Source of the DNA: Desulfotignum sp.
GTDB lineage: Bacteria > Desulfobacterota > Desulfobacteria > Desulfobacterales > Desulfobacteraceae
Length of the DNA: 46,851 nt
Assembly (NCBI GenBank): GCA_011389575.1
Contig: JAABUB010000021.1
Coordinates: forward strand, 1 to 46,851
Direction of reading: 5' to 3'
In this document: positions 16,482 to 33,109 of the stretch, one piece after another
Numbering within the stretch: the first letter of the stretch is position 1
Layout of the letters: every line of letters starts with the position of its first letter
The notes under the pieces: generated by a model
Seen by the model: only the letters and a program-made list of their open reading frames with translations
Told to the model about the DNA's origin: nothing
The model's database searches: none
Position numbers and translations under genes: made by a program

Positions 16482-16700
16482 ATGAAATTAAATTATTATC
16501 CAGAAACGGATTCTCTATATATTGATCTATCTTCAAAATATAGTAAAGAAAGTGTAGAAGTATCTGAAGGGATTGTCCTTGATTATGACGAGAATGCTCA
16601 CATTATAGGGATTGATATCGATAATGCCAGTCATAAAATTGATCTGAATGAAATTATTCTTAATAAAATTCCCGCACAGTTACAGACGATATCAGCATAA
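16482..16700 (+). CDS. DUF2283 family small protein
   Basis: A 72-aa protein with the DUF2283 layout: a short beta-rich opening (KLNYYPETDSLYIDLSS), an acidic middle and GIDIDNASHKIDLNE near the end. The function of this family is unknown. It often lies next to short genes of toxin-antitoxin character. A GGGG stretch lies 10-13 bases before the ATG. The gene is AT-rich compared with its left neighbours, which fits a mobile accessory gene. Confidence 0.8.
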   Translation: MKLNYYPETDSLYIDLSSKYSKESVEVSEGIVLDYDENAHIIGIDIDNASHKIDLNEIILNKIPAQLQTISA

Positions 16701-16710
16701 ATAAAATTAA

Positions 16711-16905
16711 TCAAACAACCCGATAAACCCATCCAGAATTTTAGCTGGGGGCGAGGAAGAACTTTTGGCTATCCAAGAAATTGAAAAAGGTAAATTTCTT
16801 GTTGTTGTATACCGTGAACTAAACAATGATGGATTTATCATTACTGCTTTTTTAACACGCAGGATAAAATCTCTTAATAGGAGAAAACAGATATGGCCGA
16901 AATAG
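16711..16905 (+). pseudogene. Truncated small ORF resembling the C-terminus of a DUF4258/BECR-type protein
   Basis: This 64-codon frame has no start codon and follows a TAA at 16708-16710. Its second half reads KGKFLVVVYRELNNDGF, then IITAFLTRR, a pattern typical of the C-terminal strands of small RelE/barnase-like or DUF4258-like proteins. It ends inside the start of the second DUF2283 gene, an overlap expected of a real gene pair. An alternative frame is open across the first 60 bases, so a deletion or frameshift removed the original N-terminus. The family assignment is tentative. Confidence 0.5.
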
Positions 16906-17120
16906 CTATTCGAGATTATCTAAATTTAATACCCACGGTAAAGCAATCTCCAAAGGGATATTTATGGTCATCATATGATTCCGAGGCAGATGTACTCTAT
17001 ATTAATTTTAAAAAGCCAAGTCATGCTACTGATAGTGAACTCACAGATGAAGATGTAATTATACGCTATGAAGGTGAAACTATTGTGGGTATTACTATTT
17101 TGCATGCAAGCAAGCGATGA
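16893..17120 (+). CDS. DUF2283 family small protein (second)
   Basis: A 75-aa protein with the DUF2283 signature: SSYDSEADVLYINFKKP, then DVIIRYEGETIVGITILHASKR. It resembles the gene at 16482 in layout but not closely in sequence. An AGGAG ribosome site is placed 9 bases before the ATG, and the gene overlaps the end of the broken ORF upstream. This suggests a former two-gene unit of a toxin-like protein plus a DUF2283 partner. Confidence 0.8.
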   Translation: MAEIAIRDYLNLIPTVKQSPKGYLWSSYDSEADVLYINFKKPSHATDSELTDEDVIIRYEGETIVGITILHASKR

Positions 17121-18144: not shown

Positions 18145-18378
18145 ATGAATTTTGATATGGTTGATGATATCGGTGAAATCGAAACGATAGCGAAGGGTTC
18201 TGGCATTCGTGAGATTGAACGCTTGAGAAAAGTATATGGACATGGAAATTGGAAAAAAATGAAAGGAATTGCTCGGGTCAGGCTTTCCTCCGGAAGGATC
18301 CGATTAGCTGAAATCCATTGGTATGAAGCTCATGGCATAGGCAAAAAAGAAATTAAGCGCAAAAAATATTTGGAGTAA
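18145..18378 (+). CDS. Small hypothetical protein, 77 aa
   Basis: A short basic protein with an acidic start (MNFDMVDDIGEIETIAKG) and a strand-rich end (GIARVRLSSGRIRLAEIHWYEAHGIG, in segments, then KKEIKRKKYLE). I have an impression of a widespread family of small proteins with this ending near toxin-antitoxin and mobile genes, but no function is known to me. Composition is AT-rich. The stop lies 8 bases before the 5' end of a group II intron remnant, so this gene or its 3' flank may have been the intron's insertion site. Confidence 0.6.
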   Translation: MNFDMVDDIGEIETIAKGSGIREIERLRKVYGHGNWKKMKGIARVRLSSGRIRLAEIHWYEAHGIGKKEIKRKKYLE

Positions 18379-18663
18379 GTCATGAGTGCGCCAGGCAAAG
18401 CTGGTAATTTCTTGTCGGTTAAAGTCCGACATAGTCAAAGGTTAGCCACCGGGCTATCACCAAGGGTGCATTTGTGGCGGTAACAAAACAAATGAAGCCA
18501 CCTGCAGGGATGTGCCAGACCGCAACGCAAGTGAAGGTATTGAGCTCCGAAATATTCAACATTGAAGAGGCCGACAGTTTTCATTTGCTGGAAGGCTGCA
18601 TGAACTGCGCTGTTAGGGCGAAGCGTGATTTACTTTATTGGTATTAAAAGATTTTACTTTCAG

Positions 18664-18810
18664 GCAATACGCCTGACTTTTAAATGGATGAACAGGAGAA
18701 GCCAGAAGAAAAGTTTTAACTGGGAACAGTTCCGAACCTATCTTAACAGGCATCCGCTTCCAAAACCGACAATTTATCACAACCTGTATACGTTATGGCA
18801 GTCAAAGTGA
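18664..18810 (+). pseudogene. C-terminal remnant of group II intron reverse transcriptase/maturase
   Basis: The frame reads RLTFKWMNRRSQKKSF, then NWEQFRTYLNRHPLPKPTI and YHNLYTLW before a stop. This is the characteristic C-terminal end of intron-encoded maturases (NRRSQ, a PLPxPxI motif). The whole polymerase domain with its YADD box and the X domain are missing. No credible start codon belongs to it. Confidence 0.82.
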
Positions 18811-18818
18811 ATATTAGC

Positions 18819-18879
18819 GAAGAGCCCGTTGCGGGAAAACCGCACGGCGGGTTCTGTGAGGGATGTCATTTCCTCACAT
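18819..18879 (+). ncRNA. Group II intron domains V and VI
   Basis: Domain V: GAGCCCG pairs with CGGGTTC and GCGG with CCGC around a GAAA tetraloop (18822-18855). Domain VI: TGTGAGG (18855-18861) pairs with CCTCACA (18872-18878). Domain V is the catalytic heart of group II introns and its preservation here contrasts with the loss of the protein. The ferredoxin ATG follows 30 bases downstream. Confidence 0.75.
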
Positions 18880-18908
18880 ACAATACGTTTAAGTATAGGA
18901 GGAAATAG

Positions 18909-19205
18909 ATGTCTACTCGACAAGATTTCAGATATCTGGCGGATGTGGCCACCCTGGTGCTGGATGAACAAAAATGCATCGGCTGCGGATTGTGCACCCA
19001 GGTCTGTCCCCATGCCGTGTTTGAGATGCACGAAAATAAAGCCCGTATTGTTGATTTCAACGCCTGCATGGAGTGCGGGGCCTGTGTCAGCAACTGCCCG
19101 GTGGATGCCGTATCTGTCAGTCCCGGGGTGGGGTGAGCCACCTATATTATCCAGGTCTGGATAAAAGGAAAGGAAAACGCCTCCTGCGGAGACGGCTGCT
19201 GTTGA
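18909..19205 (+). CDS. HgcB-like ferredoxin, candidate selenoprotein (in-frame UGA read as Sec)
   Basis: The frame from ATG 18909 (AGGAGG site upstream) runs to UGA at 19134-19136 and continues to a second UGA at 19203-19205, giving 98 residues. It carries two 4Fe-4S motifs, C23IGCGLC and C53MECGAC, each completed by a CP (C33, C63). The second motif and the phrase ACMECGAC are typical of HgcB, the ferredoxin partner of the corrinoid protein HgcA in mercury methylation. HgcB has an essential Cys near position 73 and a C-terminal Cys pair 21 residues later. Here residue 76 is the UGA codon in the context PGVG-U-ATYII, and the protein ends SCGDGCC, with Cys97-Cys98 at exactly 21 residues. A SECIS-like hairpin follows the UGA. 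If UGA is read as stop, the product is a 75-aa ferredoxin without the metal-handling tail. No hgcA is in the window. Confidence 0.8.
19134..19164 (+). promoter_or_regulatory. SECIS-like hairpin for UGA recoding in the HgcB-like gene
   Basis: After the UGA (19134-19136) a perfect 7-bp stem TTATCCA (19147-19153) and TGGATAA (19158-19164) closes a four-base loop GGTC (19154-19157). A GGUC apical loop is that of the E. coli fdhF SECIS bound by SelB. The 17-base distance from UGA to the loop is within the bacterial SECIS range and almost the same as in fdhF. The hairpin lies inside the coding frame, as is usual in bacteria. Confidence 0.78.
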
Positions 19206-20215
19206 AAAAGGAAGGCGATACCCACGTGCTTCTGCTGTTTCTCCCGGCGGCTTTAGCAGGCCGTTGACCAGGCTGATCATGCCGCCTGAAATCCGCCAGG
19301 ATTCCGGTTCCATGGGACACCTGGAAATGGTCTGGACCCGCCCGTCCCTGGTCTGGACCCGTCCGTTGCCAGCATCATACTGGGGGTACCCGGTCAGTGC
19401 CAGCATCTCTACCAGGCCGGCTATCCTGGGATTGATCTCCGGCCAGTACCAGGACGGACCGAGATCGGCCGTGTATCAATTGTATGCCGGACATAAAATC
19501 CGGCCGCCGATCCGGTCCCGGGCTTCCAGCACAATAAAGGGTTCCCCTTTTTCGGCCAGCAGAAAGGCGGCATATATTCCGCTGAGACCGGCGCCGATAA
19601 TGATGGTGTCGTGTTTTTCCATGTCAAAGATAAACAGGGTGTCCGGAACTGTCAGCGGTTATTGTGCACGCTGTGTTTTGTTCTGATGTCTTCATGAGGA
19701 TTCCTTCATTTTTTCACGACCGGTAAAGGCTCTGGCGCACGGTCATGCATATTTCATACCCGGTGCGGCCTGTTATTGGAGGTCAGTAAATGACCGGAGA
19801 CATTCCAGGGAAATGTAGGGGGGAGCAGGACAATGCCTGAAACCATTTGCCGTTAGAATCCCGCAGGTAACAATGGTGCTGCCCATTCCTGATACGGTTC
19901 CCGAATGCCGTAACCAATGTGCCTGCTGTTTAAAACCGGCTGAGCAGCCGACCGGGAAAATGACAATGCACTGGTGTTGCCGGGGATGATCAGTAGCAGC
20001 AACACGGCATGGGGTCGCAAATATGCGTATAGAATTTGGATGTCAGGCCCTGTCACTGATGCCGGTGCCGTGTATTACCTGTACCTTCGGTTCAGGGCTA
20101 CCAATTCCGCTGACGGCGCATCCTGTGGCTGCGGCGGGTGTGACAGCTGCGGTACCCTTCAAACCACTTGCGAATCAAACGGATCAAACAGATCAAAAAA
20201 GAGAAAAATGAAAAA
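19154..20215 (+). repeat. Decayed module, copy 1 (direct repeat with 31907-33855)
   Basis: From GGTCTGG onward this stretch matches the one at 31907. Shared parts are the ferredoxin tail, the FAD oxidase (truncated here), the flank up to about 19850 and the Cys-rich peptide gene near 20060-20215. Copy 1 lacks about 740 bases of the oxidase and the ABC fragments found in copy 2. Both copies run in the same direction. The segment between 19850 and 20040 differs from copy 2 and contains nothing I recognise. Confidence 0.85.
19245..19622 (-). pseudogene. Broken FAD-dependent amine oxidase-like gene
   Basis: The frame starts like the intact gene at 32033-33109: [15 protein letters not shown] with the FAD-binding GxGxxG and the [10 protein letters not shown] motif. 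A TGA replaces a glycine codon in the PAYNGYTA stretch (19475-19477). The sequence stays alignable to ISGGMISLVNGLLK, then joins unrelated sequence near 19250, removing about two thirds of the protein. The nonsense codon plus the deletion make it a pseudogene. The TGA is unlikely to encode selenocysteine because the intact copy has Gly there. Confidence 0.88.
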
Positions 20216-26374: not shown

Positions 26375-27064
26375 CTATTCTTTCATGATTTTTATGACCC
26401 TTTCATCTAAGCAGGAGCGCAGAAAGGTATTCATTGGTTTTTGATCACCTGTTTGATAAAAATCGAGCATCAATTGATTAAACTCCAGTTGTCTTTTCGC
26501 AGGAAGATTGATCGCAGGGTATCCGCAACTCAACAAGAGTCCATTCATGATAAAACGCCCCATACGCTTATTGACATCATAAAAAAATTGGCATCTTGCC
26601 ATTGTAAGAAAAAAATGGATAGCACGATCGTAAATATCGGGCATGCTGTGTGAGTCATCCACCATTTTTTCAAACAACTCCGGTAGCGAATCCGCCTGGG
26701 GGGGCATATAGTCTGTCCCTGCTATGGTAACCCCGCCAGATCTGAACCTTCCCCAATCCAATGCCTCGTCCTTACCCGCGATGCGATGTAATGCACAGAC
26801 TTTTTCACAGGTGATTTCAAACTGGTTTTTATCAATCCACCCAAATAACGTGCGCCATGTATCGGCTTGGTTCAATGCAATTTGCTGGTCAGATAATGTA
26901 TGTCCTCCAACGGTAATGCCATCAAGTAATGTCTGGATTTCCGGTAAGGTTAAATGAATCCCTTCCAAATTAACTGCGTCACATACAAACTCAGTTAGTT
27001 GGCGCTTCGCAAGCATTATTGCTTTTGCTTTATTTGGTTTCATGTCCCATTGGGTTTCATTCAT
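26375..27064 (-). CDS. Fic-domain protein with Gln replacing the catalytic His
   Basis: About 229 aa. The Fic core motif, usually HPFxDGNGR, reads QFFYDVNKRMGR; the catalytic His is Gln (about residue 159), while the Asn-Lys-Arg needed for nucleotide phosphates is kept. The N-terminus has AVNLEGIHLT, close to the (S/T)xxxE(G/N) inhibitory helix of self-inhibited Fic proteins. Fic enzymes transfer AMP or other groups to target proteins; this one may be inactive or belong to a divergent clade. I start it at the ATG giving MNETQWDM; a GTG three codons upstream is possible. It converges on the Hsp70 operon. Confidence 0.8.
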   Translation of the reverse strand: MNETQWDMKPNKAKAIMLAKRQLTEFVCDAVNLEGIHLTLPEIQTLLDGITVGGHTLSDQQIALNQADTWRTLFGWIDKNQFEITCEKVCALHRIAGKDEALDWGRFRSGGVTIAGTDYMPPQADSLPELFEKMVDDSHSMPDIYDRAIHFFLTMARCQFFYDVNKRMGRFIMNGLLLSCGYPAINLPAKRQLEFNQLMLDFYQTGDQKPMNTFLRSCLDERVIKIMKE

Positions 27065-27437
27065 TTCACACACCGACGTAATTATGGAGTATTGGGTTTC
27101 AAACGGGCCGGGTCATCCGCCCAGTCGGCAGCCTTGCAGGTTCGGCTGACCCCTGGCCGTCCCTGCCACGCTGCTGTATAGGAGTATACAATGATTTATT
27201 TGATAACTCAAACTGATAAAGAAAACCCGTAAAACCCGTCCGGGTCCGTGTGCCAGAACACATCCGCGTCGTGGATGCCGGGGCTCCACCCTTCCTGGTC
27301 TGTCCGGTTGCTATAAAATAGCAATCAGCTGTTTTGCAGTATTACATCACCGGGTTCATTATTCTCTTGATTTTTTATGAATTTTTACAGATAGTTGGAC
27401 CTTGAATAAAAGAAAAGAAAGGGGGACATAGACTTTG
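27065..27437. other. Intergenic stretch with possible coding debris
   Basis: Between the divergent Fic and SNF2 genes I see no intact gene. On the minus strand a stop-free run ending at 27214 reads [22 protein letters not shown], in natural-looking codons, and is preceded by a stop at about 27330. It looks like the tail of a lost gene. The right part is AT-rich and should hold the SNF2 promoter; no convincing -35/-10 pair stands out. Confidence 0.4.
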
Positions 27438-31906: not shown

Positions 31907-31958
31907 GGTCTGGATAAAAGGAAAGGAAAATGCTTCCTGCGGAGACTGCTGCTGTTGA
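31907..31958 (+). pseudogene. C-terminal remnant of a second HgcB-like ferredoxin
   Basis: In frame this reads VWIKGKENASCGDCCC and a TGA. It matches the last 16 residues of the gene at 18909-19205 (VWIKGKENASCGDGCC). Everything 5' of the shared GGTCTGG is replaced by the MITE-like sequence, including both Fe-S motifs and the UGA codon. The extra Cys in place of Gly gives three terminal cysteines. Confidence 0.85.
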
Positions 31959-32032
31959 AAAAGGAAGGCAACACCCCCGTGTTTCTGCTATTTCCCCGGC
32001 GCCTGGCTGGTGATCCCGGAGTTGCATTTGTT

Positions 32033-33109
32033 TCATTGGAAAGCAGCACGGACCGATCTTTCAGCGCTGGCCAGGGCCCCTTCAAGATATCCCCCGAACA
32101 CATCCGATGTTTCACTTCCCGCAAAACAGAGGATCCCGTGCCAGATACAGGCGTGTCCCGACGGGGGGTGGAACCGGGGATGGTCATGGGCGGCCCTCTG
32201 GTCATACTCCGTGGCAGTGTATCTTTCCATGGCCCAGTCGGTGTAAAAAACCGTTTTGGGTGAGTCTGCCTTATCTCCGTACAGGTGGTGAAGCTGTTGA
32301 AGGGTTGCCTGAATCACCGCCTGTTTGTTTCGGCGCTGGGCCGCATGTATTCCCACAAATCCGGTCAGACCGAATGGGCCGCCGGTGTGATTTGACCCGT
32401 CGTGGATTTCTCCCAGAGGGCCGGACTGGCTGAAGGCCTGGCCTGAAAAACCTGCATTCCGCCAGTCAGCTATGTCATACAGGGCGAAAAACTTGGCCTG
32501 TCCTGCCATCCATGTACTGGTTCTGAGCATGGCCTGGGTCAATTCCCGGGACAGATCAGGTGTGAACAGGATGGTGGCTGCTGCCAGGCGTGGCGGCAGT
32601 GCCAGAATAATCCTGGACGCCTGATATCGGCAGCAGGGGGATTGCCCCGGTTTTCCGACATTGACAATGGCATGGTTTGTTTTTTGTTCTATTTCACATA
32701 CCGGCTGATTCAGCCGGACCGCATCTTGGGGGATGGTTTTCAGCAGACCGTTGACCAGGGTGATCATGCCGCCTGAAATCCGCCAGGATTCCGGTTCCAT
32801 GGGACATCTGGAAATGGTCTGGATCCGCCCGTCCATGGTCTGAAACCGTCCGTTGCCGGCATCATACTGGGGGTACCCGGTCAGTCCCAGCATCTCCACC
32901 AGGCCGGCTATCCTGGGATTGATCGCCGGCCAGTACCAGGACGGGCCGAGATCGGCCGTGTATCCATTGTATGCCGGACATAAAATCCGGCCGCCGACAC
33001 GGTCCCGGGCTTCCAGCATAATAAAGGATTCCCCTTTTCTTGCCAGCAGAAAGGCGGCATATATTCCACTGAGACCGGCGCCGATAATGATGGTGTCGTG
33101 TTTTTCCAT
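32033..33109 (-). CDS. FAD-dependent flavin amine oxidase-like protein
   Basis: A 358-aa flavoprotein. The FAD-binding Rossmann motif [16 protein letters not shown] opens the protein, followed by EARDRVGGRI, the second signature of the amine oxidase/phytoene desaturase superfamily. The C-terminal FAD motif is seen in ILCFAGSETSDVFGGYLEGALAS (in parts). It is somewhat shorter than typical monoamine oxidases (about 450 aa). The substrate is unknown. It faces the ferredoxin remnant tail to tail. A truncated copy lies at 19245-19622. Confidence 0.88.
   Translation of the reverse strand: MEKHDTIIIGAGLSGIYAAFLLARKGESFIMLEARDRVGGRILCPAYNGYTADLGPSWYWPAINPRIAGLVEMLGLTGYPQYDAGNGRFQTMDGRIQTISRCPMEPESWRISGGMITLVNGLLKTIPQDAVRLNQPVCEIEQKTNHAIVNVGKPGQSPCCRYQASRIILALPPRLAAATILFTPDLSRELTQAMLRTSTWMAGQAKFFALYDIADWRNAGFSGQAFSQSGPLGEIHDGSNHTGGPFGLTGFVGIHAAQRRNKQAVIQATLQQLHHLYGDKADSPKTVFYTDWAMERYTATEYDQRAAHDHPRFHPPSGHACIWHGILCFAGSETSDVFGGYLEGALASAERSVRAAFQ

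What the first reader, a model, noticed from the sequence alone, without database searches (positions are those of the whole stretch)
18909..19205. HgcB-like ferredoxin with selenocysteine predicted at the essential cysteine
The frame passes an in-frame UGA at the exact place where HgcB has the strictly conserved Cys (Cys73 in the studied protein). The spacing to the C-terminal Cys pair is 21 residues, the same as 73 to 94. Reading through UGA restores a full HgcB-length tail ending SCGDGCC. A perfect 7-bp hairpin with the classic GGUC loop follows at the right distance. Selenolate binds mercury more tightly than thiolate, so a Sec in this position would be a striking variant of the mercury methylation ferredoxin, or a related metal-handling protein. 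I know of no described Sec-containing HgcB.
Basis: partly seen in the sequence, partly recalled or inferred. Interest (0 to 1): 0.95.

Follow-up and report, generated by a model that had tools for sequence, protein, structure and literature searches.

The report
Selenocysteine HgcB, cut off from HgcA
This bacterial gene for HgcB, a partner protein in making toxic methylmercury, carries a UGA codon that is predicted to be read as selenocysteine exactly where other HgcBs have an essential cysteine; all 55 genomes of its family in which the gene was found share this UGA, selenium forms of HgcB have already been predicted in print, and here no copy of the usual partner gene hgcA was found in the assembled genome.

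Summary
The frame at 18909-19205 is an HgcB (NF040864, 125.2 bits, cut-off 99) with an in-frame UGA at 19134 in place of the conserved cysteine, then a perfect 7-bp GGUC hairpin (19147-19164). The UGA is very probably a selenocysteine codon: it recurs in 55 of 55 HgcB genes found in the family; 61 of 61 distinct Sec genes keep all 7 stem pairs against 0 of 62 Cys genes; stem codons are frozen at silent sites (0.03 bit against 1.15 in 33 other conserved columns); the genome encodes SelA, SelB and tRNA-Sec. The claim that no Sec-HgcB is described is wrong: a 2026 review tabulates it, citing Haft & Gwadz 2023. So this is a new member of a known kind in a broken, or mis-assembled, operon, useful mainly as evidence that Sec is fixed in HgcB across a whole family.

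The parts
18922..19205 (+). hgcB from codon 2 to the final TGA (19203-19205); 4Fe-4S motifs CIGCGLCTQVCP and CMECGACVSNCP, Sec codon, terminal CC
   Evidence: NF040864 125.2 bits, cut-off 99; DNA homology to same-genus hgcB; translation
18909..18921 (+). start codon and leader (ATG TCT ACT CGA C) of the called ORF; lies at the 3' end of the group II intron
   Evidence: same bases at the end of a second intron copy on contig C151, which then runs into another gene; RF00029 match ends at 18921
18897..18902 (+). AGGAGG, ribosome-binding-site-like, inside the intron, 6 nt before the ATG
   Evidence: sequence; also in the C151 copy
19134..19136 (+). in-frame TGA, predicted selenocysteine codon at the Cys73-equivalent position
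   Evidence: same codon in 61 distinct genes, including all 55 family genomes with HgcB
19147..19164 (+). SECIS-type hairpin, 7-bp stem with GGTC loop
   Evidence: 7 of 7 pairs in 61 of 61 Sec rows, in 0 of 62 Cys rows; frozen silent sites
18386..18921 (+). degenerate group II intron, 536 nt, without a full reverse transcriptase; 5' end placed by a recalled GTGCG consensus
   Evidence: RF02005 18421-18653 and RF00029 18820-18921; longest + strand ORFs inside are 57-61 aa, the 61-aa one without a Pfam match
18145..18378 (+). 77-aa ORF of unknown family just upstream of the intron, where hgcA stands in relatives
   Evidence: no NCBIfam or Pfam match; 71% DNA match on contig C99
17448..18077 (+). 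DNA-3-methyladenine glycosylase gene
   Evidence: PF03352 274.7 bits
31907..31997 (+). second, front-less copy of the hgcB tail
   Evidence: 90% identical to 19154-19244; 97% to G010
32033..33109 (-). FAD-dependent amine-oxidase-like gene, hgcB's neighbour in G010; a partial copy lies at 19252-19510
   Evidence: PF01593 138.3 bits; repeats; G010 order

Best explanation
This is an hgcB gene whose UGA at 19134 is predicted to be decoded as selenocysteine by SelB, tRNA-Sec and the GGUC hairpin just downstream, giving an HgcB with a likely selenolate where the mercury-handling Cys73 normally sits. Shown by sequence: the shared UGA, the frozen hairpin and the Sec machinery. Inferred: Sec insertion itself, and its use as a mercury ligand that passes Hg(II) to the terminal Cys pair and HgcA. 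Sec is a fixed trait of HgcB in this family (nearest named genus Desulfotignum), beside an HgcA that keeps its usual cysteine. In this genome the gene has been separated from hgcA: a decayed group II intron ends inside codon 2 of hgcB and carries its own ribosome-binding site and ATG in frame, so an orphan Sec-HgcB with leader MSTRQ could still be made. It probably does not methylate mercury here unless hgcA lies in the missing part of the genome.
For: NF040864 125.2 bits over cut-off 99. TGA at the site in 55 of 55 family genomes with HgcB, of 86 searched. 7 of 7 stem pairs in 61 of 61 Sec rows, 0 of 62 Cys rows. Three Ile codons of the stem invariant in 61 of 61 (ATT, ATC, ATA) while upstream Ile codons are 72/56/41; synonymous entropy 0.03 against 1.15 bit, 0 of 33 other columns as low. 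SelB, SelA, tRNA-Sec over cut-off in the own genome. Intron matches and the C151 copy. No HgcA by PF03599, NF040863 or a same-genus HgcA query, which does find HgcA in G004, G010 and G011.
Against: No protein evidence. SelD not searched. 11 of 61 loops are not GGTC. 3 of 62 Cys rows also have GGTC at the loop position, without a full stem. One public homologue has Leu at the site (P0002). Genome 83% complete, 163 contigs, and the junction lies in a repeated intron, so the loss of hgcA may be an assembly or binning effect. [quoted passage not shown]
Confidence: 0.85

Rival explanations
1. The Sec-HgcB is real but the missing hgcA is not: the contig was joined at a repeated intron, or hgcA lies in the unassembled part, and the living cell has an hgcA next to this hgcB (with or without the intron).
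For: Genome 83.09% complete, 163 contigs. A second intron copy exists and its contig C151 begins inside the intron. In G011 the glycosylase gene and hgcB lie about 2.5 Mb apart on one contig, so the window's order is not the usual one. 60 of 61 Sec rows have an HgcA motif upstream.
Against: The contig runs through the intron without a gap; no fragment of hgcA was found elsewhere in the assembly; the hgcB region shows a further rearrangement, a partial duplication.
Confidence: 0.35
2. UGA is a true stop: the product is a 75-residue ferredoxin or the gene is a pseudogene.
For: The frame stops there by the standard code; 90 of 120 listed database homologues end at GVG, as gene callers would give in either case.
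Against: Tail, hairpin and silent sites are conserved after the UGA in 61 genes, which a stop would not explain; Sec machinery present.
Confidence: 0.04
3. The Sec-HgcB clade serves another metal or redox reaction, and mercury is a side substrate.
For: The natural substrate of HgcAB is not settled (recalled). Here the gene persists without a found hgcA with its cysteine motifs intact.
Against: In 60 of 61 Sec rows an HgcA cap-helix motif lies within 1.5 kb upstream, the classical pair; HgcA of G010 scores 421.3 bits with NF040863, cut-off 275.
Confidence: 0.2

Closest known systems
Selenoprotein form of HgcB (NF040864, motif GVGU; Haft & Gwadz 2023, as listed in PMC13188914 Table 1; passages seen)
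   Same: Same family model and the same GVGU motif.
   Different: The original paper is not held, so its taxa could not be compared. Here hgcB is interrupted in codon 2 by an intron and no hgcA was found.
Cys-type HgcB of the HgcAB mercury methylation pair (PMC11588087; passages seen)
   Same: Two 4Fe-4S motifs, conserved position 21 residues before a terminal Cys pair.
   Different: Sec codon in place of Cys73; hgcA not found in this genome.
Bacterial SECIS hairpins (family recalled, no call)
   Same: GGUC apical loop on a stem shortly after the UGA, inside the coding region.
   Different: 7-bp stem that begins 10 nt after the UGA; 11 of 61 Sec rows have another loop.
Group II introns (Rfam RF02005, RF00029)
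   Same: Matches to both models, AC at the 3' end.
   Different: Reverse transcriptase lost; its 3' end carries a ribosome-binding site and ATG in frame with hgcB.

Membership tests
HgcB (NF040864) | Score over the curated cut-off | tested here: met
   125.2 bits, cut-off 99, profile 1-93 of 93
HgcB (NF040864) | Two CxxCxxCxxxCP cluster motifs and a terminal Cys pair | tested here: met
   CIGCGLCTQVCP, CMECGACVSNCP...GDGCC
HgcB (NF040864) | Cys (or Sec) after GVG | tested here: met
   TGA, as Sec, in the Sec subtype GVGU tabulated in PMC13188914; not met as a literal Cys
HgcB (NF040864) | hgcA next to it (functional HgcAB pair) | tested here: not met
   No HgcA motif upstream and no HgcA over cut-off in the assembled genome; genome 83% complete
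Bacterial selenoprotein gene | In-frame UGA aligned with a Cys of homologues, recurring in relatives | tested here: met
   61 Sec and 62 Cys rows
Bacterial selenoprotein gene | Conserved SECIS hairpin after the UGA | tested here: met
   61 of 61 against 0 of 62; silent sites
Bacterial selenoprotein gene | SelA, SelB, tRNA-Sec, SelD in the genome | tested here: inconclusive
   SelB, tRNA-Sec and SelA found over cut-off; SelD not searched
Bacterial selenoprotein gene | Sec present in the protein | not testable with these tools
   needs 75Se labelling or mass spectrometry
Group II intron (upstream element) | Catalytic RNA domains | tested here: met
   RF02005 95.3 bits (gathering 49), RF00029 49.5 bits (gathering 40)
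Group II intron (upstream element) | Complete intron-encoded reverse transcriptase | tested here: not met
   longest + strand ORFs inside 57-61 aa; the 61-aa one has no Pfam match

The most novel reading that the evidence does not exclude
Throughout the Desulfobacteraceae, HgcB works through a selenolate, so methylmercury formation by this family depends on selenium supply; and in this genome the selenoprotein has outlived its partner, expressed as an orphan from a ribosome-binding site and start codon supplied by a group II intron.
Probability: 0.3. Interest if true: 0.75.

Novelty: new member of a known kind. Interest (0 to 1): 0.42.

Why it matters
HgcB is one of two proteins needed to make methylmercury. 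If the residue thought to handle mercury is selenocysteine in a whole family of sulphate reducers, selenium status could control their methylmercury output, and these species would be natural test cases for the role of that residue. There is a practical side: 90 of the 120 listed database homologues of this protein end exactly at the UGA (217 were found, 120 listed), so surveys based on predicted proteins may score such HgcBs as truncated or miss them.

Tried and rejected
Rejected: the TGA as an isolated sequencing error (same codon in 61 distinct genes). Rejected: Sec-HgcB as common in the phylum, 115 of 395 sampled genomes have HgcB, six have a match flagged with TGA, and in the five besides the window's own (G281, G097, G268, G331, G319) the site is Cys and the TGA lies elsewhere. 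Rejected: Sec in the HgcA cap helix of these organisms (no NVWU-type motif upstream in any of 123 rows; the motif is recalled). Rejected: contig C107 as hgcA; the HgcA model gives 72.3 bits there, cut-off 275, against 295.7 bits for PF03599; AcsC-like is my reading.

Led nowhere: solved structures (20 sequences at E <= 1e-8, none named HgcB); hgcAB with group II introns (0 papers); orphan hgcB (5 listed, none read for it); Desulfospira with hgcA (1 listed, not read); Desulfotignum with hgcB (1 listed, not read). An exon-binding site in the intron: TCATTT at 18581 would pair with AAATGA, as at the hgcB start of G001 and G006, but TCATTT also occurs at 18866 and the present flank TCATGA has only wobble-rich partners; too weak to use.

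The two HgcA motif scans differ: one search misses L001, L034, L162, L203; one search misses L001, L034, L144, L152, L162, L216, L221. Missed by both: L001 (the window), L034 and L162 (449 and 677 nt upstream available). Pair-counting tools were not used because all Sec rows keep all stem pairs.

Full report
WHAT IS THERE. The frame at 18909-19136 is open for 75 codons, stops at TGA 19134-19136, and reads on to a second TGA at 19203-19205. The read-through product scores 125.2 bits with NCBIfam NF040864, mercury methylation ferredoxin HgcB (curated cut-off 99, profile 1-93 of 93). The TGA falls in GVG-U-A, where the family has GVG-C-A, 21 residues before the terminal Cys pair, as C73 is to C94 in the studied protein (numbers from passages of PMC11588087). 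The hairpin TTATCCA-GGTC-TGGATAA begins 10 nt after the TGA; 0.03 matches to its pattern (3 mismatches allowed) are expected in the window by chance.

IS THE UGA SELENOCYSTEINE? Four lines of sequence evidence agree. First, recurrence. Of 86 genomes of the family (own included) 55 have HgcB over the cut-off and all 55 carry an in-frame TGA in the match; I hold all 55 loci and each has TGA at this codon. Of 59 genomes in the relatives search 38 have HgcB over the cut-off: 26 of 26 in the family and 1 of 12 outside it (G051, locus L045) have a TGA in the match. In a sample of the phylum (395 genomes) 115 have HgcB; apart from the window's own genome none has TGA at this codon (five others flagged with TGA are Cys at the site). 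The named scan (80 of 121 loci kept) added five further Sec genes (L178, L192, L203, L205, L216). This makes 61 distinct Sec rows and 62 distinct Cys rows.

Second, the hairpin: 61 of 61 Sec rows form all 7 stem pairs and 0 of 62 Cys rows do (2 to 6 pairs). The loop in Sec rows is GGTC in 50 of 61, then GGTT 6, GGTG 2, and GGGC, AGTT and GGTA once each; 3 of 62 Cys rows also have GGTC there. Third, silent sites: the three Ile codons of the stem are ATT, ATC and ATA in 61 of 61 rows, while Ile codons upstream in the same genes are 72 ATT, 56 ATC and 41 ATA. Mean synonymous entropy is 0.03 bit in the four stem codons counted (+4, +5, +6, +9) and 1.15 bit in 33 other conserved columns, none of which is as low (the loop codon +7 and Trp +8 were left out of both sets). 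Relatedness alone does not explain this, because neighbouring codons vary in the same rows. Fourth, machinery: the genome has SelB (344.1 bits, cut-off 242.25), SelA (599.2, cut-off 267.9) and tRNA-Sec (76.9, gathering score 47; ARAGORN anticodon tca). SelD was not searched. Sec insertion itself is inferred.

EVOLUTION. A tree of 123 HgcB rows (Sec/Cys site masked, 87 columns, many forks unresolved) puts 60 of 61 Sec rows in one clade (support 93/83); L216 lies outside it in an unresolved fork, so at least 2 changes are counted. The window's nearest row is G004. By the same reasoning the cultured Desulfospira joergensenii DSM 10085 (G021) and Desulfocicer vacuolatum DSM 3385 (G014) are Sec types. 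No NVWU-type motif lies upstream of any of 123 rows, so HgcA seems to keep its cap-helix cysteine.

Rfam finds a group II intron directly upstream (RF02005 at 18421-18653, RF00029 at 18820-18921). A second copy on contig C151 shares 61 nt ending at 18923, including AGGAGGAAATAGATGTCTACTCGAC, and then runs into a different sequence. So the intron ends at 18921, and the ATG at 18909 with its ribosome-binding site belongs to the intron. DNA homology with same-genus hgcB begins there, in codon 2. The 5' end is taken as 18386 from GTGCGCC (recalled consensus). The 5' flank ends in ATGA, so splicing would give ATG-AAA-GAT-TTC, the MKDF start seen in some relatives; unspliced, the intron's own ATG gives MSTRQ-DFRYL. 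No full reverse transcriptase is left in the window's copy. In C151 a second intron-like element sits inside the first, with a 439-aa ORF that reads like an intron reverse transcriptase (the ORF was not searched against a library).

THE PARTNER. In 60 of 61 Sec rows an HgcA cap-helix motif lies within 1.5 kb upstream by at least one of two motif scans; the exception is the window. Here the upstream genes are a 77-aa ORF of unknown family and a DNA-3-methyladenine glycosylase. No HgcA is found in the genome with PF03599, NF040863 or the HgcA protein of G010; the one weak match, on C107, reads as AcsC-like. The last search finds HgcA in G004, G010 and G011, but not in G005 and G007, which also lack HgcB over the cut-off. 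In G011 the glycosylase gene and hgcB lie about 2.5 Mb apart on one contig, so the window's order is derived or mis-joined. Downstream, 19154-19244 and 19252-19510 recur at 31907-31997 and 32739-32997 (90% and 95%); the right-hand copy is 97% identical to G010, where hgcA, hgcB and the oxidase gene lie together. The region has been rearranged more than once. The genome is 83% complete in 163 contigs, and an assembly join at the repeated intron is a serious rival.

MECHANISM. Best reading: SelB delivers Sec at UGA 19134; the two 4Fe-4S clusters carry electrons as proposed for other HgcBs; the selenolate takes the place of Cys73, which with C94 and C95 is needed for methylation in the studied protein (PMC11588087, passages). 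That the selenolate binds Hg(II) is inferred chemistry. In this genome, without a found hgcA, the protein is probably idle or a relic; the same paper reports HgcB expressed without HgcA as insoluble. The frame is still intact: 6 nonsynonymous and 9 synonymous codon differences from G004.

NOVELTY. Sec-HgcB is in print. PMC13188914 (passages) tabulates HgcB with motif GVGU, citing Haft & Gwadz 2023 (not held), and HgcA with motif CU; PMC11588087 (passages) says in one sentence that some hgcA and hgcB homologs may be selenoproteins. A search for HgcB with selenocysteine returned 1 paper, for selenoprotein with HgcA 4. Fixation across a family and an orphaned copy behind an intron were not in the passages I saw; I cannot say that they are unpublished. 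Database proteins mostly miss the tail: of 120 listed homologues (217 found) 90 end exactly at GVG, 28 have Cys and 2 neither; P0002, which has Leu at the site, does not fit either class.

Noticed in passing
window 18897-18921; L074 (G000:C151) 2051-2111: The 3' end of this group II intron carries AGGAGG-AAATAG-ATG; in both copies seen the ATG opens a frame into the downstream sequence, so the intron may supply a portable start site to the gene behind it.
   Followed up: partly
L074 (G000:C151) 1-2111: Intron within an intron: a second group II intron (RF02005 match, 439-aa reverse-transcriptase-like ORF) sits in the last domain of another copy of the window's intron.
   Followed up: partly
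window 19154-19510 and 31907-32997: Partial duplication of the hgcB tail and the convergent amine-oxidase-like gene around a 12-kb block with TPR, GrpE, DnaK and helicase genes; in G003, G008 and G011 much of that block (from about 20060 or 20227 to 26700-27130) lies just behind hgcB.
   Followed up: partly
P0002 (JGI protein, 95 aa): A close full-length homologue has Leu at the Sec site (GVGLATYII); a natural variant or a sequencing error.
   Followed up: no
L115 (G035): A second in-frame TGA in the C-terminal tail (SC-U-DSGCC); a second Sec, a truncation or an error.
   Followed up: no
L109, L110, L126 (G268, G331, G445; family f69): Cys-HgcBs that keep the QVW residues, two of them with GGTC at the loop position (L109, L126); possible reversions from Sec or a precursor of the hairpin.
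   Followed up: no
window 16482-16700 and 16893-17120: Two small DUF2283 proteins in a row upstream of the glycosylase gene.
   Followed up: no
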